Shown one piece after another: positions 4,318-33,412 of a DNA stretch of 64,000 nt. The stretch comes from Tangfeifania diversioriginum (GTDB lineage Bacteria; Bacteroidota; Bacteroidia; Bacteroidales; Prolixibacteraceae): NCBI RefSeq assembly GCF_900141875.1, contig NZ_FQZE01000003.1:124001-188000 (forward strand), given 5' to 3'. Within the stretch, counting starts at the first letter, position 1. Each line of letters starts with the position of its first letter. The notes under the pieces were generated by a model. It saw only the letters and a list, made by a program, of their open reading frames with translations. It searched no databases and was not told where the DNA came from. Made by a program: the position numbers and the translations under genes.

Positions 4318-4394
4318 ATGTGGGCCAGAGTTTGCCAAATCTGTTAAAAAAGCTAATTTAGCCACCCTCAAAAAAATCTGTAAAACCTACTGGT

Positions 4395-5621
4395 GTGAAA
4401 ATAGTTAAGATCAAACTTCACTGGCAAATTCTTATCGCCCTCGTTTTAGCAGTTTTATTTGGATATTATATTCCCCAGGGAGTAAAATATGTTTCATGGG
4501 TGGGCGATATTTTTCTGCGTGCCTTAAAAATGATAATTATCCCGCTGGTTTTCAGTTCTATTATTAGTGGTGTTTCCAGTATTGGAGGCGGAAAAAACCT
4601 TGGAAGGCTCGGCATTAAAACTCTTTTCTACTATTTATCAACCAGCACGTTGGCCATTGTTACAGGATTAGCAGTAGTGAACCTGGTTAAGCCCGGCGTG
4701 GGCGTCGATTTGGGATTTTCCAAATCAGTTGAAGGACTGGAAGAACATGCCGGTTCGGTCAGAGATATTTTTTACAGACTGATTCCCGACAATGTGATTG
4801 ATGTGATGGCACGCGGGGAAATACTTCCTGTTATCTTTTTTGCCATCCTTTTTGGCTATTTCATAACTCAGGTTGGAAAAAAATACAAAGAATCACTCTC
4901 CACATTTTTCGATGCCATGTTTGAAGTGATGATGAAATTAACTATGTTCATTATCCGTTTTACCCCGCTTGGAATTTTCGGAATTGTTTCGGCCGAAGTC
5001 GCACGCAACTCCGAAGACCTGGCCAGCGTTGCCGGCAGCCTGGCCATTTACAGCCTCTGCGTGGTTTCTGCACTGCTTTTTCATGCATTTGTAACACTTC
5101 CCGTTATTGTGCGCGTGGTTGGAAAAGCACATCCTTTCAGGCATTTAAAAAATATGGCAACACCGCTGCTCACCGCATTTTCAACCTCTTCGTCGAGTGC
5201 CACGCTTCCGTTAACAATGGATGCGCTGGAACACAACAGCGGCGTTTCCAATAAAGTTACAAGTTTTACTTTACCCCTTGGAGCCACCATCAACATGGAC
5301 GGGACGGCCCTTTATGAATGTGTGGCTGCCATGTTCATCGCCCAGGCTTATGGTGTCGATTTAACTTTCGGACAGCAAATACTGGTTGTTATTACTGCAC
5401 TGCTGGCATCAATAGGTGCAGCCGGAATTCCAATGGCCGGGCTGGTAATGATTACTGTGGTACTGTCGGCAGTCGGCCTTCCGCTTGAAGGCATCGGCCT
5501 GATTCTGGCAGTTGATCGAATCCTCGATATGCTGCGTACTTCAGTTAATGTTTGGAGCGACAGCTGCGGCGCAGTAACCATTGCACGGTCGGAAAATGAG
5601 GAAACCAGCGTTGCCGTTTGA
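4395..5621 (+). CDS. Dicarboxylate/amino acid:cation symporter (DAACS family)
   Basis: An inner-membrane secondary transporter of the GltP/DctA/ASCT type, taking up a dicarboxylate or amino acid with Na+ or H+. It is 408 residues with about eight membrane segments. The family motifs are present: the serine-rich re-entrant loop FSTSSSSATLP, the cation site GATINMDGTALYE, and the C-terminal DRILDMLRTSVNVWSD substrate site. In the last motif W-S-D replaces the more common T/L-G-D. The start is GTG at 4395, and no ATG fits the conserved N-terminus. It lies 77 bases behind the sulfatase and could be read with it. The substrate is unknown. Confidence 0.9.
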   Translation: MKIVKIKLHWQILIALVLAVLFGYYIPQGVKYVSWVGDIFLRALKMIIIPLVFSSIISGVSSIGGGKNLGRLGIKTLFYYLSTSTLAIVTGLAVVNLVKPGVGVDLGFSKSVEGLEEHAGSVRDIFYRLIPDNVIDVMARGEILPVIFFAILFGYFITQVGKKYKESLSTFFDAMFEVMMKLTMFIIRFTPLGIFGIVSAEVARNSEDLASVAGSLAIYSLCVVSALLFHAFVTLPVIVRVVGKAHPFRHLKNMATPLLTAFSTSSSSATLPLTMDALEHNSGVSNKVTSFTLPLGATINMDGTALYECVAAMFIAQAYGVDLTFGQQILVVITALLASIGAAGIPMAGLVMITVVLSAVGLPLEGIGLILAVDRILDMLRTSVNVWSDSCGAVTIARSENEETSVAV

Positions 5622-25323: not shown

Positions 25324-25668
25324 TTAATTGTTTTGCTTTTTGTTTTCCAGATTTTTTAATCCCTCTTCCAACTCCTTCATTATCTGAGCATCTTCGGTTC
25401 TAATCCTGGTTAAAGTATTTTTCATATTTCGCTGAACCTCGCGTTTGCCCTCGGGTTGAGCTGTCAAGGATTCCTTGACAACTGAAATTTCGTTTAGCTC
25501 GTCTTCCTTAAAAATGTTCCGAATGTGCAGGCTCCCATTTAGTTTTGTGGGTTGAAAAAGTTCGCCCATTTGTGCCTGCGAAAGCCAACCGGTTTCATCT
25601 TTTAATCGAACATCAATTCGCGTTTGCCCGTCTTCGGTTTGATAGAGTAGTATTTCTGAATCTGACAT
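25324..25668 (-). pseudogene. RhuM-family N-terminal remnant 1
   Basis: A 114-residue ORF. Residues 1-75 match the start of the RhuM ('virulence protein') family: ILLYQTEDGQTRIDVRLKDE, WLSQAQMGELFQ, SLHIRNIFKEDELNE. This is a winged-helix DNA-binding region. Full members run to about 300 residues. Here the match ends near residue 82 and an unrelated charged tail follows, so the C-terminal domain is missing. It is the first of three such remnants in a row and ends 22 bases upstream of rhamnosidase 3. It may still be translated. Confidence 0.6.
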
Positions 25669-25701
25669 TATGTATTTTCTTCTTTTACTGTTTTCCCAAC
25701 T

Positions 25702-26055
25702 TCACCTTGTGTTATTTCTTTTGTTTATCAGATTTACGATAATCTTTATAATTGTTCCCTTTTCTTCTGTTTTACTTACTGCAATTATTAAATCAAGATT
25801 GTAATATTTGATGTTTCGTTTAATTTTCCGTCCGCCTTCTTTTTGAACTTGTGCAATTTTTGCACAAGTTGAATTTTCTTCTAATTCCTCAGATTTGTAT
25901 ATGTTTGAAATGTGCCGGTTTATCGAAGTCCTGTTTGTTTCAAACAAAGATTCAAGCTGATACTGATTTAGCCAAACAGTTTCATTATCAAGTTGAACCT
26001 CAATTTCTGTTGTTCCATCTATTGTTGTAAATATTTGAATTTCCGATTTATTCAT
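25702..26055 (-). pseudogene. RhuM-family N-terminal remnant 2
   Basis: A 117-residue ORF with the same RhuM start in diverged form: IQIFTTIDGTTEIEVQLDNE, VWLNQYQLESLFETNRTSINRHISNIYKSEEL, then YYNLDLIIAV at 83-92. It then leaves the family alignment, where full-length proteins continue with VGYRV. It differs enough from remnant 1 to be an independent paralogue, not a fresh duplicate. Confidence 0.6.
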
Positions 26056-26073
26056 TTCTGTTATTTCTCAAAA

Positions 26074-26205
26074 TTAATGAATCTTTAAATGAACAGACTG
26101 GCTTTTTTCGATAAGGTTTTGTAAAAATATTTTATCCATCGCTCTGGCGAAATGCAGTTGAACATCAATTTTGGTTTGATAAAGTAGCATTTCTGAATCT
26201 GCCAT
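26074..26205 (-). pseudogene. RhuM-family remnant 3 (43 codons)
   Basis: A short ORF starting MADSEMLLYQTKIDVQLHFA. The first 12 residues and IDVQL match the start of remnant 1, but the recognition-helix part is deleted and the frame jumps to HFARAMDKIFLQNL, like a later part of such proteins. It is most likely a decayed gene. The 127 bases from here to the Fic gene contain nothing else I can identify. Confidence 0.45.
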
Positions 26206-27457: not shown

Positions 27458-27852
27458 ATATATGGTTTATTTGCTGCACAAAAAATTAATCGTCGCATTT
27501 ATTGCGACAAATAATCAAATTATTCGTTGCATGGTTATTTTTTTGAATGTAGGAAATAATATTTGTAGCCGATGAAATTAGCACTATACCCCAAATGCAC
27601 TATACACAATATTTCTTGCTGACCTTTGCTCATCATCAGCTGCTTACCAAGCATTTAAAAAAATCAAATCTTCCAATCGGAGAACTGCTGTCCCCAAAAA
27701 ATTAATTTTTAGGGACGGCAAAAAAGAGGGGCCAGCCAGACAAGTTATTTTGCAATTTTGGAGTGTATGTTGGCATGTGTGAATTGCAAATGTGCTTGAC
27801 TGTGTGGGCTGGTTTAATTTGTCAATGTGCAATTTGTGCAATTATTGTGCAA
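27458..27852. other. Non-coding accessory spacer with palindromes
   Basis: There is no convincing gene. It contains an imperfect 35-bp palindrome at 27686-27720 (TGCTGTCCC facing GGGACGGCA, with A5/T5 inside). A looser ~80-bp palindrome covers about 27730-27812 (CAGCC and TTGCAATT facing AATTGCAA and GGCTG). Three near-tandem TGTGCAATT words run into the stop codon of the next gene. A 65-codon minus-strand ORF crosses both palindromes and is not credible as a gene. Confidence 0.5.
27787..27814. repeat. 28-bp direct repeat, copy downstream of the AlbA_2 gene
   Basis: This 28-bp block (beginning CAAATGTGCTTGACTGTG) is identical at 29256-29283. The two copies bracket the 27853-29178 gene. This copy is also the right arm of an imperfect ~80-bp palindrome. 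Confidence 0.8.
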
Positions 27853-29178: not shown

Positions 29179-29255
29179 AAGTTACAAACATACCCTTTCT
29201 GATGTTACAAATTCATTCAATTGATTACCTCTTTTGCATGGTTTTGATCAAATTC

Positions 29256-29283
29256 CAAATGTGCTTGACTGTGTGGGCTGGTT
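29256..29283. repeat. 28-bp direct repeat, copy upstream of the AlbA_2 gene
   Basis: An exact second copy of 27787-27814, located 78 bases upstream of the AlbA_2 gene start. Unlike the first copy it lacks the left arm of the palindrome. Just beyond it the DUF1998 remnant begins. Confidence 0.8.
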
Positions 29284-29548: not shown

Positions 29549-29557
29549 TAACAAGTA

Positions 29558-29780
29558 AAATTCTTATTTTTGTATCGTTCACGACTTCTTGCAGAGCATT
29601 TCAAGAATTCAATAATCACTTGAATATCAACAACAACCAAATATAAAATCGTCGTTAAGTACATAGAAAAAATTCCTGCAAAATAAACCGGGTTGTAGCC
29701 TGCCCGACTATGTCATTCAGGCGGGTTCAACATGGACTCATCACTGGGCGCTGCACGCTGCTCAGAGTCCTATTTATTAG
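29558..29780. repeat. 3'-flank module R1, behind the FRG gene
   Basis: Bases 29558-29698 align without gaps to 31242-31382 with 11 differences in 141 (about 92% identical). A second homologous block follows, GTTCAAC plus a 39-base tail ending TCCTATTTATTA, after an extra 26 bases (29699-29724) that R2 lacks. The module starts 12 bases after the FRG stop codon. The minus-strand frame in the 141-bp core stays open and reads YNPVYFAGIFSMYLT...RYKNKNF. Confidence 0.85.
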
Positions 29781-29791
29781 GTGCCGATTTT

Positions 29792-30952
29792 TCATCTTGA
29801 AGCAGTTAATCTTGTCCTAAACTTTATTTTGTATGTCTGCTCCATATTAAAATTTGCATATAATTTATTTATTTGTTCAATTTCTTCTTTTGGAATGACA
29901 TTCTGAGAATTCTTTAATTCATACCCAAAATCCATTAAAAATTGCTTCAATGTCTCTTTATTAAGTGATTTAAATTTAGGGTCTTCACATACATACTCGA
30001 ATGTTTCAATTGAAAATATTTTTCGTCTTTTAATTTTGTCAATTTCTGCCTCCATTAAATTTAATCCTTCATGAGGGTATATCTTTTTTCCAAGGTCCAT
30101 TTGATTAAATATGTAATTACATAATTCCTCATCATGTTTAAATCGAAATTTTTTAAAAGTGTTTTCTTTTTGCAAGCAATGTGATTTATCCATCATAGCA
30201 ACATAGCTGTTTTGCATATGACATCTCATAAAAGGCTGGAATCCTACAGGTAAAATTTTAACCGGTTGTGATTCCAATGGTATTAGATTATTTATATGAT
30301 TTGTTTGTTTTTGGAATATTACGCCAAATTGAGTTTTATAGCTTTTTTTGAAATCTTCCTTGTTGAGAGGTTCCCATTTATGTGATTGATTATCAAACTT
30401 ACAACAAGCAAAAAATAGGGCAACCTCGAAGTCAGCTGTAATATCCAACCAGCATGTTTCAAGTCCATAATGTTGAGCTAATTGTTCGTATAACAAATCA
30501 ATATAAATTTTGGCTGGTGCTTTATTGAATGAATATTGGCGCGATATAAACTTTTGAGTATGGTCTAATTTTAGTAATAGTTCAAGAAAATCTGCAATTC
30601 TCATGTAAGCAACAAACTCCTCAATCAATAATTCCTTTGAATTCTTCATCTTACTTAACCTACGATATAGCGAAGCTTGAGATGAGTCAAATAGTTGATT
30701 TTCTCCCCTATAATAATAACTTCTTTGAGCTTGCCTTATTACTGTCCCATGTGGATATGTCATAATGAAACCATCAATATACATGTCAGAAAAGACTTCT
30801 TTGAAAAAATCAAGTCTATTCCAACCATTTGGATACGGATTGTAATTATTGTTTCGTAATTTTCTTATTTCTTCAGCTTTTATTCTGTCAGTTTCATTTC
30901 CTTTTAATAAAGAGAATATTTGTTCTTTCGTTATGTCAATATATTTATTCAT
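29792..30952 (-). CDS. FRG domain-containing protein
   Basis: A 386-residue soluble protein. The FRG domain spans about residues 55-230. Its name motif appears as YYYRGENQLF (79-88), and the second hallmark is QHYGLETCWLDITADFEVALFFA (160-182). The C-terminal 150 residues are Lys-rich with no recognised domain. FRG proteins are widespread, of uncertain biochemistry, and often found in phage-defence neighbourhoods. Codon use is clearly more AT-rich than in the metabolic genes on either side, which fits recent transfer. It is followed by module R1 and preceded by the attC-like palindrome. Confidence 0.88.
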   Translation of the reverse strand: MNKYIDITKEQIFSLLKGNETDRIKAEEIRKLRNNNYNPYPNGWNRLDFFKEVFSDMYIDGFIMTYPHGTVIRQAQRSYYYRGENQLFDSSQASLYRRLSKMKNSKELLIEEFVAYMRIADFLELLLKLDHTQKFISRQYSFNKAPAKIYIDLLYEQLAQHYGLETCWLDITADFEVALFFACCKFDNQSHKWEPLNKEDFKKSYKTQFGVIFQKQTNHINNLIPLESQPVKILPVGFQPFMRCHMQNSYVAMMDKSHCLQKENTFKKFRFKHDEELCNYIFNQMDLGKKIYPHEGLNLMEAEIDKIKRRKIFSIETFEYVCEDPKFKSLNKETLKQFLMDFGYELKNSQNVIPKEEIEQINKLYANFNMEQTYKIKFRTRLTASR

Positions 30953-30978
30953 TTTGGGAAGTGTCGAGTTAAATTGGC

Positions 30979-31110
30979 AACTAACGGTAAATTGTATGAG
31001 TAGTGGCAGATTGCGGGCTTATCACCTGTCAAACCGCTACGTAGATTGAGCGGGCTACAAACCTTGATATTTAACACTTTCCCTGCCATTACTTATACAA
31101 AATGTTGAAC
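30979..31110. repeat. attC-like 132-bp imperfect palindrome
   Basis: The outer arms ATTGTATGAGTAGTGGCAG (30991-31009) and CTGCCATTACTTATACAAA (31083-31101) pair at 16 of 19 positions. An inner hairpin CCGCT/AGCGG lies near the middle. The ends carry CTAACGG on the left and GTTGAAC on the right (31104-31110), the latter fitting the integron core GTTRRRY. Size and architecture resemble integron attC sites and the large attC-like repeats seen between accessory genes in Bacteroidota. No integrase is in the window. Confidence 0.55.
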
Positions 31111-31241
31111 TAAATCCCTGCGGGATAGCTGAATTAAAAACACTCACAAAGTACTCATTTATTCCGTTGAAAATGAATTTCATCTTAATTCAATTGTTTC
31201 AATTTTCTATCGCCCCAAAAATTTTAAATATATAACAAATG
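31111..31241. other. AT-rich spacer between the attC-like palindrome and module R2
   Basis: No gene or RNA is recognised. With the palindrome and R2 it forms the 481-base gap between the FRG and HEPN genes. A short CCCTGCGGGA hairpin lies just after the palindrome. Confidence 0.4.
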
Positions 31242-31433
31242 AAATTCTTATTTTTGTATCGTTTACGACTTCTTGCAGAGTAGTTTAAGAATTCAATAAT
31301 CACCTGAATTTCAACAACAACCAAACCTAAAACCCTCGTTAAGTACATAGAAAAAAATCCTGCAAAATAAACCGGGTTGTAGTTCAACACAGAATAATCG
31401 CTGGGTCGTGCCGACCGCTCATATTCCTATTTA
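31242..31433. repeat. 3'-flank module R2, behind the TPR-HEPN gene
   Basis: The second copy of the R1 module. The 141-bp core is 31242-31382. It is followed directly by GTTCAAC (31382-31388) and the 39-base tail, which runs into the stop codon of the HEPN gene. The minus-strand frame is open with a possible GTG start (31390) and reads YNPVYFAGFFSMYLTRVLGL, a hydrophobic helix, then SARSRKRYKNKNF. It therefore could encode a 63-residue membrane peptide, though I do not call a gene. Confidence 0.85.
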
Positions 31434-32975
31434 TTATCTTCTGGCTTTTTCATTCTTAATTATCATTTCTTCTCTGGCACAAAAAACATAACTAAAAATT
31501 GCTGAACGAGTTAATTGTAGAAGATGTTTTGTTTTTAATTCAAAAACTTCTTTTGAGGTATGTGCAGAAAATTTTTTATCTGATATTAAACTCAATTTTG
31601 AGTCGTTTGATTCTGTAATTGAGAAAATACCATGTTCAATTTTATTTCTCCAGACTTTATAAAATCCAAATTCTCCATTTTTTTTATTTAAGTCACAGGC
31701 AATACTAAAAAGAGCAGTAAGATGAATATTTTTAAATGAATTTATTTTTTCCCACCTGTTAGATTTTTCTTTATAATGATGCCAAAAACTTTCGAAATAA
31801 ATGTTTTCATTTACTCCGACATCAAGGTCAAAAAGATAACAAATTCCTTCTGCTATTTTGTCAAGGATACCAAAACAGAGCCTAAAGCTTGTTCTTAGTT
31901 TTTCATGCTTAACACCATTGTGTATATCAAATGATAAGTCCTCATAGTGTACATTGTCATTATTTTCTTTAAACAAGTAATCGAAGTATAAACTTCTAGA
32001 TAAAGAAAATTCTGACTTAATTCTATTATGGAGCATTTCTAAATGAATTATTTTTTTGTCATTTGTTATTAATCCCGGATAGCCAATCACTAGATTGTCA
32101 ATTTTGGCTCCGTTGCATTTACAGTATAAACCGTACTCTGATAAATTCAAAAAGTTATCGAGATAATATTTAGTCTCTTTCGAATGTTTTTGATATTCTA
32201 GCTTATTTAATTCTTTCTCCTCACCAATTTTTTTGAAATCAAAATTATTCGCTTGTAAAAACTCTTTGCTTTTTTGCAACCCAGATTCTACGGTATTCTT
32301 TATTACATCCAAATGAATTGGATTTTTGAGTGCTTTTGTAAATAGGTTATAAACTTCCAAAAACAAGGAAATTGTTATTTCAGTATTTGCAGCTCGAAGC
32401 ATATATAAAAGTCCATCTGCTTTTGAGACTAGAGCCTGAGGAAAATTGGGATTGAATTTTAATACTGTGTCAAAAAGCTGTAAAGCTTCTACTATCCTAC
32501 CAGAATGATTTAAATTGTTCCCTAAGTTTGTTAGAACCTGAATGGAATATTGGTCAAGATTTTTTAAGTCTAATTTTTTAAAAGATTTTAAATATGCTTG
32601 TTTCGCATCGAAAAGATACTCTCTAACTGCATCTGGTTTGGGAAAGAATTCAGTATTGTTGTGAATTGAAATTTTATAAAGAGCATGATAACCATTTCCT
32701 AAGCAATAATCAATGCTATCTTCTCTAATATATTTTTTAAGAACTTCTTTATTATCATTGAATAATTTTAGCCCTTTAATAACTGCTTCTCTTTTATATG
32801 CTTCACTTCCAAGATTTATGTATGAACCTGCAATTTCAGCTAACAAGTACAAATCATCTTTTTCCTTTTCCGAAAATTCAGAAAATTGAGACTCTAATTC
32901 GTCAAATGCCTCTTTATATTTTCTGTTGTTAAGAAAAGTATCAATTCTATTTTTTAACTCTTTTGCTTCTTGCAT
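31434..32975 (-). CDS. TPR protein with C-terminal HEPN domain (LA2681-like)
   Basis: A 513-residue soluble protein. The N-terminal two thirds are helical repeats of TPR type, for example NLDQYSIQVLTNLGNNLNHSGRIVEALQLFDTVLKFNPNFPQALVSKADGLL. The C-terminal part ends with FGFYKVWRNKIEHGIFSI, where R-N-K-I-E-H (443-448) fits the Rx4-6H catalytic motif of HEPN ribonucleases. This arrangement matches LA2681-like HEPN proteins. HEPN nucleases cut RNA in toxin-antitoxin and abortive-infection systems, so a defence role is likely but unproven. The gene is very AT-rich, stands alone, and is followed by module R2. Confidence 0.72.
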   Translation of the reverse strand: MQEAKELKNRIDTFLNNRKYKEAFDELESQFSEFSEKEKDDLYLLAEIAGSYINLGSEAYKREAVIKGLKLFNDNKEVLKKYIREDSIDYCLGNGYHALYKISIHNNTEFFPKPDAVREYLFDAKQAYLKSFKKLDLKNLDQYSIQVLTNLGNNLNHSGRIVEALQLFDTVLKFNPNFPQALVSKADGLLYMLRAANTEITISLFLEVYNLFTKALKNPIHLDVIKNTVESGLQKSKEFLQANNFDFKKIGEEKELNKLEYQKHSKETKYYLDNFLNLSEYGLYCKCNGAKIDNLVIGYPGLITNDKKIIHLEMLHNRIKSEFSLSRSLYFDYLFKENNDNVHYEDLSFDIHNGVKHEKLRTSFRLCFGILDKIAEGICYLFDLDVGVNENIYFESFWHHYKEKSNRWEKINSFKNIHLTALFSIACDLNKKNGEFGFYKVWRNKIEHGIFSITESNDSKLSLISDKKFSAHTSKEVFELKTKHLLQLTRSAIFSYVFCAREEMIIKNEKARR

Positions 32976-33412
32976 GGTACTCTTTTAAGCTTGAAGATAA
33001 CTATGTTGTCTGTGATCCACAGCTATACAATATTTCTTCCCGCCGGAAATAGTGTCAACCTTTCTTATTTTATAAAGTAACTCGGTTTGCCTGTCATGTT
33101 GCAAAAAGAAGTTGGGCAGGGAAGCAATCCGGGATGGTTTGTTGGATTTGGAATTTCGCACAGGTTTTGGTTTTCAGTTTTTGTTAAACAATAAGGTGAG
33201 CTAAATTAGGGATTGCTGCCCGAAAAAGCAAATAAAAGCCTTATATTAATGGTTATAAGCGAAATAGCAAATCTCAAATAACAAATAACAAATAAATTCC
33301 AAAATATGAAAAACCAATTATCGAAACAATATATATTTCAGAATTTAAGAAATTTATTATCATTTCCTGTTAAAGAAAACTATCCTGTAAAGCGAGAAAT
33401 TATTTACCGAAT
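32976..33412. other. Non-coding boundary of the accessory region
   Basis: The 437 bases hold no credible gene. Around 33270-33300 is a tandem CAAATAA-type run, a motif seen scattered in Bacteroidota genomes. GCAGGGAAGCAATCC at about 33117 and GGATTGCTGCCC at about 33210 form a loose inverted pair. A 43-codon plus-strand ORF from 33306 runs into the opposite gene and has no recognisable features. This is where the sequence returns to the composition of the core genes. Confidence 0.4.

What the first reader, a model, noticed from the sequence alone, without database searches (positions are those of the whole stretch)
31434..32975. Stand-alone TPR-HEPN protein, candidate RNA-targeting defence effector
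The RNKIEH motif (443-448) fits the HEPN ribonuclease Rx4-6H site and is preceded by helical repeats that could sense a phage or ribosomal target. The gene is alone, AT-rich and cassette-like. LA2681-type HEPN proteins are predicted, not experimentally defined, defence proteins.
Basis: partly seen in the sequence, partly recalled or inferred. Interest (0 to 1): 0.6.

Follow-up and report, generated by a model that had tools for sequence, protein, structure and literature searches.

The report
TPR-HEPN nuclease in integron-type gene cassette
A predicted RNA-cutting protein of a known but apparently untested family sits in a Bacteroidota genome as a swappable gene cassette, and some of its relatives elsewhere lie beside known virus-defence genes, so it is probably part of a movable anti-virus toolkit.

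Summary
The ORF is real: 513 aa, minus strand. Residues 304-503 match Pfam HEPN_LA2681 (157 bits, cut-off 27); R443, N444, E447 and H448 are invariant in 18 aligned sequences (this one and 17 relatives). AlphaFold2 predicts a TPR superhelix followed by a helical bundle; the fold search for HEPN is supportive but weak. "Cassette-like" is literally true: the gene fills a 1,569-bp unit with complementary start and end, as in integron cassettes. A blind test finds such ends here and around the neighbouring FRG gene, but in 0 of 50 control ORFs. Its 69%-identical homologue in another Bacteroidota MAG also lies between attC-like sites, whose stem shows compensatory changes. Some relatives sit by BREX, Qat or Gabija genes, in a P2-like gpA-portal hotspot, 12 nt behind a NACHT gene in E. 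coli, or (once) between rtcB and rtcA. Best reading: a stand-alone RNase defence effector, TPR part sensing, HEPN part cutting; neither was tested. Unexpectedly, attC-like arrays are common in related genomes and follow a tyrosine recombinase lacking the IntI-specific insertion, possibly an unrecognised integron lineage. The protein is a new member of a known family; its carrier may be a new variant.

The parts
31434..32975 (-). TPR-HEPN protein, 513 aa, LA2681-like HEPN
32157..32975 (-). N-terminal TPR superhelix, residues 1-273
   Evidence: AlphaFold2 helices 2-273; VIA Z 13.3-15.6 to TPR structures, alignments within residues 1-256 in most rows; single sub-threshold TPR_1 match
31467..32066 (-). 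HEPN_LA2681 domain, residues 304-503
   Evidence: PF18733, 157.3 bits; domain model pLDDT 86.4, pTM 0.88
31632..31649 (-). RNKIEH, residues 443-448: predicted RNase motif Rx4H
   Evidence: R443, N444, E447, H448 invariant in 18 aligned sequences, the window's included
31433..33001 (-). HEPN gene cassette, 1569 bp: starts GTTATCTTC, 26-nt leader, ends in the complementary GAAGATAA that contains the stop codon
31104..31388 (-). ORF-less cassette, 285 bp; 217 nt covering most of it and the end of the HEPN gene match 6 places in the genome, this one included
30978..31110 (-). attC-like site, 133 nt, folded stem
   Evidence: model R1 118.1 bits, though it is one of the 14 training sequences; 95.6% of stem cells paired, 11 of 15 pairs changed on both sides
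29776..30985 (-). FRG gene cassette (ORF 29792-30952, 386 aa)
   Evidence: ends 10 of 12; FRG PF08867 41.4 bits; PADLOC PDC-S15 35.8 bits
29549..29792 (-). second copy of the ORF-less element, after the FRG gene, alike only over part of its length

Best explanation
The gene encodes a stand-alone LA2681-family TPR-HEPN protein. Shown: family membership, the invariant catalytic motif, a predicted TPR plus helical-bundle architecture, and integron-type cassette ends around the gene. Inferred: the TPR superhelix binds a phage- or infection-made cue, releasing or dimerising the HEPN domain. HEPN then cuts host or phage RNA (tRNA-like substrates are the best guess), leaving 2',3'-cyclic phosphate ends, and stops infection by abortive infection or dormancy. 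Also inferred: in enterobacteria an adjacent NACHT protein supplies part of the sensing, and in one gammaproteobacterial MAG RtcB/RtcA encoded next to it could reseal the cut RNA. In this Bacteroidota genome the gene travels as a cassette, as other candidate defence genes of the genome do.
For: PF18733 157 bits. R443/N444/E447/H448, K320/E322 and D372/K373 invariant in 18 aligned sequences. Full model pTM 0.90; HEPN chains first in VIA for the domain model. dN/dS about 0.11 against L049, dS near saturation. Neighbours of relatives: PglZ 1047 bits, BrxA 268, QatA 309, QatC 294 and QatD 207 in L052; BrxC 1908 and SoFic 150 in L055; GajB 666 about 4.4 kb away in L050; SieB 80 in L062, between genes that I read by eye as P2-like gpA and portal, the hotspot named in PMC9122126 (passages). 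NACHT + HEPN pair, query genome included, in 8 E. coli genomes, 6 complete and 2 covering 79%. RtcB and RtcA neighbours in L061. Patchy spread: 4 of 395 genomes of the phylum and 2 of 61 in the relatives search, own genome included in both; 23 of 5426 E. coli with the L044 gene as query. Of 10 proteins of this genome's cassettes and their surroundings scanned, 5 match a PADLOC model at 1e-5, AbiP2 RT 640 bits, PDC-S36 135 and HamC2 133 the strongest.
Against: No activity was measured. No PADLOC model matches the protein. Neighbours were chosen by eye before scanning: proteins of 4 of 13 genome loci went into, where those of L056 and plasmid L041 matched nothing; no defence gene was identified at L051, L053, L054, L059 and L060, where few ORFs were scanned. 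Foldseek gives no E under 0.1 for the HEPN domain, and rhodopsins score close behind the HEPNs in VIA. One kind of promoter motif was sought upstream and not found, so the cassette may be silent.
Confidence: 0.6

Rival explanations
1. A stress or RNA-quality-control RNase, part of a cut-and-repair cycle with RtcB/RtcA, with no specific role against phages.
For: In L061 the gene lies 18 nt after rtcB and 1 nt before rtcA, with a Ro60/TROVE gene about 1 kb before rtcB. RtcB and RtcA act on 2',3'-cyclic phosphate ends (PMC7790460 and PMC11090510, passages), the ends HEPN RNases are described to leave (PMC3710099, passages).
Against: Seen at 1 of 13 genome loci; at others the neighbours are defence genes, a prophage hotspot or islands; very patchy distribution.
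Confidence: 0.2
2. A toxin-like stabiliser of the cassette array, held in check by something from the ORF-less cassette that follows it.
For: The ORF-less element follows the HEPN gene directly and recurs at 6 places in the genome, this one included.
Against: The same element follows unrelated genes; no such element lies behind homologue L049; no MNT or other antitoxin gene was found beside it.
Confidence: 0.07
3. A silent or decaying cargo cassette without present function.
For: 26-nt leader; one promoter motif type sought upstream and not found; integron cassettes far from a promoter can be silent (PMC12409362, passages).
Against: Intact ORF, all invariant residues kept, dN/dS about 0.11 against its nearest homologue.
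Confidence: 0.1
4. An orphan effector that works only with a partner protein such as the NACHT protein seen in enterobacteria.
For: NACHT gene 12 nt upstream in E. coli; L051 has an AAA ATPase gene two genes upstream.
Against: No such gene lies directly upstream in the window or in L049.
Confidence: 0.03

Closest known systems
LA2681 HEPN family (Pfam PF18733; Anantharaman et al. 2013, PMC3710099, passages read)
   Same: Sequence family, conserved Rx4-6H, TPR fusion
   Different: The table row that I saw names TPR fusion and TPR operons only; cassette carriage, the NACHT pair and the Rtc neighbours are not in it
Integron defence cassettes of Vibrio and mobile integrons (Darracq, Getz, Kieffer 2025, known to me only through passages and the reference list of the review PMC12409362)
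   Same: Candidate defence gene as an attC cassette in a genome with other such cassettes
   Different: Bacteroidota host; a small group of cassettes away from any integrase; the main array of the genome follows a recombinase without the IntI insertion
Integron-cassette HEPN 3jrt (Vpc_cass2), a row of the table in PMC3710099
   Same: HEPN protein encoded in an integron cassette; appears in VIA at Z 6.5
   Different: Another HEPN family of that table; its chain of 166 residues is too short for the TPR part
NACHT (NLR-like) defence proteins
   Same: In E. coli a NACHT gene directly precedes the LA2681 HEPN gene
   Different: None beside the gene in the window
HEPN-MNT toxin-antitoxin pairs
   Same: HEPN fold; HepT chains among the VIA matches
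   Different: No MNT antitoxin beside the gene in the window

Membership tests
LA2681-like HEPN (PF18733) | Profile match over the curated cut-off | tested here: met
   157.3 bits against 27
LA2681-like HEPN (PF18733) | Rx4-6H motif conserved | tested here: met
   R443 and H448 invariant in 18 aligned sequences
LA2681-like HEPN (PF18733) | TPR fusion | tested here: met
   Model and VIA; Pfam TPR_1 itself stays under its cut-off
HEPN superfamily | HEPN four-helix bundle | tested here: inconclusive
   HEPN chains rank first in VIA (Z 9.4, 9.1, 8.6) but rhodopsins reach 8.2; Foldseek best E 0.11, to YutE
HEPN superfamily | Metal-independent RNase activity | not testable with these tools
   needs an assay
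Integron gene cassette | Complementary start and end of the same unit | tested here: met
   10 of 12 beyond GTT in a blind search, 0 of 50 controls
Integron gene cassette | attC with a conserved folded stem | tested here: met
   Downstream site 30978-31110: 11 of 15 pairs compensatory. The short site directly after the HEPN stop folds no better than its shuffles
Integron gene cassette | Recombination by an integrase | not testable with these tools
   needs an assay
Complete integron (IntI + attI + cassettes) | IntI with its specific insertion beside the array | tested here: not met
   Recombinase beside the main array lacks the insertion; the genome's true IntI has no attC match in the 18 kb read around it; no integrase match lies in the window's part of C52
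HEPN-MNT toxin-antitoxin | Adjacent MNT antitoxin | tested here: not met
   Neighbours scanned are FRG, SLFN_AlbA_2/HATPase, Fic and RhuM-like
Known PADLOC defence systems | Match to a PADLOC protein model | tested here: not met
   0 families at E up to 1

The most novel reading that the evidence does not exclude
The cassette belongs to an unrecognised integron lineage of Bacteroidota in which a tyrosine recombinase with an extra N-terminal domain and without the IntI insertion excises and inserts folded attC cassettes. It collects and exchanges anti-phage genes such as this TPR-HEPN RNase and an AbiP2-type reverse transcriptase.
Probability: 0.4. Interest if true: 0.82.

Novelty: new variant of a known kind. 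Interest (0 to 1): 0.56.

Why it matters
The HEPN protein is a clean, single-gene test case for a family proposed in 2013. The name LA2681 occurs in one paper of the library searched, and I found no test of it; but DefensePredictor (PMC13092281, passages) validated four systems with HEPN domains whose sequences I could not see, so one of them may be a relative. The Rtc neighbours suggest an RNA-end readout (2',3'-cyclic phosphate capture). If the array result holds, integrons are far more common in this branch of Bacteroidota than IntI-based searches report (PMC9024848, passages: in Bacteroidetes earlier only integrases without cassettes, then a complete integron in Salinibacter). It would also mean that recombination of folded attC sites does not need the IntI-specific insertion, which can be tested directly.

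Tried and rejected
The full-length Foldseek search of the PDB and its VIA second look were filled by TPR and other repeat structures, and the viral library had no E under 0.01. So the HEPN part was folded and searched alone; Foldseek gave no E under 0.1 there. Absence of a family in these lists is no evidence. phmmer against PDB sequences found TPR proteins and weak matches that I take as chance. No phage record matched the window protein; one record matched the L044 relative over 47%.

The neighbours SLFN_AlbA_2, Fic and the RhuM-like fragments were considered as further cassettes and rejected: the blind test gives 5 of 12, no candidate, and 4 of 12 for each RhuM fragment. A hairpin in the short site after the HEPN and FRG stops was considered as a compact attC; its folding energy is not clearly better than shuffles, so it is named only from the complementary ends.

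The first cassette-end comparison used landmarks that I chose by eye (14 units, mean 9.8 of 12 against 4.5 across units, 0 of 100000 permutations; two units, C26 and L049_a, scored 6). That is biased, so the blind search is the one to quote: 10 of 19 ORFs tested reach 10 or more. Of the nine others, AbiP2 RT reached 9, HamC2 8, C26 8 with a pair other than the one read by eye, a 212-aa ORF 6 and L049 461 aa 6; the four window neighbours above are the rest. The 50 control ORFs are all those of 150 aa or more outside the cassette zone in the window and in L028, overlapping frames included.

On the attC stem one measure is weak: 38 of 500 shuffles reach the number of further pair types.

Enrichment of defence genes in the cassettes of related genomes was tested on 47 cassette-zone ORFs and 47 of 127 control ORFs drawn at random (at 1e-10). 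Cassettes: 20 models, each matched by one member, under 7 names (SduA, PD-T7-4, bSEFIR, PDC-S05, PDC-S06, PDC-S09, mad3). Controls: 6 models, each by one member, under 3 names (mad2, mad3, PDC-S01). The number of members is not given; a trend only, not a result. A Bacteroidota-type promoter motif (recalled) upstream of the gene was sought and not found.

Full report
1. What is there. The ORF at 31434-32975 on the minus strand is 513 codons long with an ATG start. Residues 304-503 match Pfam HEPN_LA2681 with 157.3 bits against a cut-off of 27. Only one TPR is seen by Pfam, and under its cut-off. AlphaFold2, with 18 aligned sequences, gives a confident model (pLDDT 87.3, pTM 0.90): helices 2-273 form a repeat superhelix and helices from 307 to 505 a bundle. 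The repeat part aligns to TPR structures at Z 13.3 to 15.6 in the 50 rows shown. The HEPN part alone (pLDDT 86.4, pTM 0.88) puts sacsin HEPN, a HEPN protein (4nqf) and Csm6 on top (Z 9.4, 9.1, 8.6), with a rhodopsin and HepT at 8.2 and HepT, YutE and AF_0298 at 8.1. Foldseek's best match is YutE at E 0.11. The fold evidence supports HEPN but would not carry the case alone; the sequence family does.

2. Conservation. In 18 aligned sequences (the window's and 17 relatives of 20 to 69% identity), the invariant residues include K320, E322, D372, K373, R443, N444, E447 and H448 in the HEPN part, and Y90, N94, N150, R160 and E163 in the repeat part. This resembles the arrangement described for active HEPN RNases: Rx4-6H, a polar residue after R and an upstream acidic residue (PMC3710099, passages). 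Against its closest homologue (L049, 69%) dN/dS is about 0.11, with dS near saturation. The family is rare: 4 of 395 genomes of the phylum and 2 of 61 in the relatives search, own genome included in both, and 23 of 5426 E. coli genomes with the relative from L044 as query.

3. The gene is a cassette. A repeat begins at or just after the stop codon and recurs at 6 places in the genome, this one included. Reading the flanks showed the hallmark of integron cassettes (recalled): each unit starts with GTT followed by letters complementary to its own end. A blind search (any GTT within 120 nt upstream, any AAC/AAT from 15 nt before to 60 nt after the stop) finds 10 of 12 matching positions for the HEPN and FRG genes of the window, and 10 or more for 10 of 19 ORFs tried. 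It finds 5, none, 4 and 4 for AlbA, Fic and the two RhuM-like fragments, 10 or more in 0 of 50 control ORFs (highest 9, once), and in 0 of 2000 shuffles of the HEPN flanks. The HEPN cassette runs from 33001 to 31433, with a 26-nt leader and its stop codon inside the end motif. It is followed by an ORF-less cassette (31388-31104), an attC-like palindrome (31110-30978) and the FRG cassette (30985-29776). In the MAG contig L049 the 69% homologue lies between near-identical attC-like sites in a row of four ORFs with four sites.

4. The attC site. Fourteen sites (10 of this genome, 4 of L049) align over 139 columns. The stem has 95.6% of cells paired against 69% in shuffles and 33-49% when slid, with compensatory changes at 11 of 15 pairs; one of five measures, the number of further pair types, is reached by 38 of 500 shuffles. 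I drew the stem from the fold of one of the sequences, which favours it. A covariance model from them finds 23 sites in the genome at E 0.01 or better, the 10 training sites included; 150 of 1087 first-look candidates were scored, so 23 is a lower bound. In 22 sources of 403 kb, among them the window, L028 and 12 of the genome loci of relatives, it finds only the window's site and one match at E 0.26.

5. The array of the same genome. Eight sites on one strand at C52:223094-236602 form an array, about 66 kb from the window's cassettes on the same contig. Read by eye, each unit's start pairs with its end, and the first unit begins 86 nt behind the stop of a 373-aa tyrosine recombinase; in the blind search four single-gene units of this array score 8 to 11 of 12 and a 212-aa ORF of a unit with several genes 6. 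This recombinase matches TIGR02249 only outside its positions 181-240; aligned to the genome's true IntI it lacks the IntI insertion there, and it has an N-terminal extension. The true IntI (357.5 bits, cut-off 265) has no site in the 18 kb read around it. Of 10 proteins from this genome's cassettes and their surroundings, 5 match a PADLOC model at 1e-5: an AbiP2-type reverse transcriptase (640 bits), PDC-S36 (135), HamC2 (133), PDC-M48B (59) and an HTH protein (24); 5 match none.

6. Relatives. The model finds sites in 49 of 61 genomes of the relatives search, own included; two genomes reach 55, which is the number of candidates scored per genome, so these are lower bounds. Around 18 homologues of the array recombinase, 12 loci hold sites: 39 in all, and by comparison with the coordinates all lie downstream of the recombinase on its strand. 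One of the 12 (L128) matches only from residue 90 and has a stop inside, as has L126. Of the 6 loci without a site, 5 have under 520 nt of contig downstream; L121 has 10 kb and none, though sites lie beyond it. I left out two homologues whose contigs end within about 105 nt downstream (G035:C5, G036:C28). Around 18 other tyrosine recombinases, 2 loci hold 3 sites. The control set is not matched for genome or contig length, and loci were drawn from a list that I had already seen. The IntegronFinder 2.0 paper (PMC9024848, passages) says that an extra domain distinguishes IntI and reports, for Bacteroidetes, only integrases without cassettes earlier and then a complete integron in Salinibacter. 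My paper searches listed no paper on arrays with such a recombinase by title or opening of the abstract; I opened passages of two of the listed papers, and the library is partial.

7. Where relatives of the HEPN gene live. Of 13 loci from the genome scan, known defence genes were confirmed by PADLOC near 3: L052 (PglZ, BrxA upstream; QatA, QatC, QatD downstream), L055 (BrxC, SoFic) and L050 (GajB, about 4.4 kb away). I chose neighbours by eye: proteins of 4 of the 13 loci and of plasmid L041 went into that call, and those of L056 and L041 matched nothing. L056, L057 and L058 have a long gene ending 12 nt upstream; that of L056 has no PADLOC or Pfam match. In E. coli RefSeq names the gene in this place NACHT (L065) or hypothetical (L066, L067, shorter). 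With the E. coli pair as query, 8 of the 23 E. coli genomes hold it, the query genome included, 6 complete and 2 with 79% coverage; of the other 15 I looked at one (L066). In L062, a prophage contig, the gene lies before a SieB gene between genes that I read by eye as P2-like gpA and portal, the place described as an anti-phage hotspot in PMC9122126 (passages); L063 and L064 gave the same match and were not listed. In L061 it lies between rtcB (436.8 bits) and rtcA (242.6 bits), with a Ro60/TROVE gene about 1 kb before rtcB. L049 is the cassette row. No defence gene was identified at L051, L053, L054, L059 and L060, where two, one, none, one and one ORFs were scanned.

8. How it probably works. 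Inferred: the TPR superhelix recognises a cue of infection, HEPN domains pair, and RNA is cut with a 2',3'-cyclic phosphate end. The Rtc neighbours fit that chemistry, because RtcA makes and RtcB joins such ends (PMC7790460, PMC11090510, passages). In enterobacteria a NACHT protein may add a sensor. With a 26-nt leader and no promoter motif found by the one search made, expression in this host would depend on read-through from upstream or on rearrangement; integrons have been described as stores of defence genes in Vibrio (PMC12409362, passages).

9. Verdict. The protein is a new member of a known family for which I found no test. Its carriage as a cassette is well supported. Its defence role is likely but unproven. 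The recombinase-attC arrays are the boldest part and need an assay.

Noticed in passing
G000:C52:220659-236602 (L037, L018): Cassette array behind a 373-aa tyrosine recombinase without the IntI insertion; homologous recombinases precede attC-like arrays in related genomes.
   Followed up: partly
L018:3941-5458: AbiP2-type reverse transcriptase (PADLOC 640 bits) inside an attC-bounded cassette; blind end test 9 of 12.
   Followed up: partly
L061:1967-8567: Gammaproteobacterial MAG with Ro60/TROVE, rtcB, LA2681 HEPN and rtcA in a row.
   Followed up: partly
L065, L066, L067: E. coli islands with integrase genes at tRNA-Asn or tRNA-Thr; the LA2681 HEPN gene lies 12 nt behind a gene named NACHT in one and hypothetical (shorter) in two.
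   Followed up: partly
L028:8591-9553 (G000:C42): A true IntI integrase (357.5 bits) without attC matches in the 18 kb read around it.
   Followed up: no
window 29549-29792 and 31233-31449: ORF-less element found at 6 places in the genome; one copy borders what I read by eye as a group II intron reverse-transcriptase fragment (L018:6595-6789).
   Followed up: partly
window 27782-27814 and 29251-29283: 33-nt direct repeat, 97% identical, on either side of the SLFN_AlbA_2/HATPase gene; the attC model does not match there.
   Followed up: no
window 25324-26205: Two short RhuM-like ORFs and a third similar stretch, probably remnants.
   Followed up: no
window 4368-4450: Weak attC-model match (E 0.26), probably chance.
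   Followed up: no
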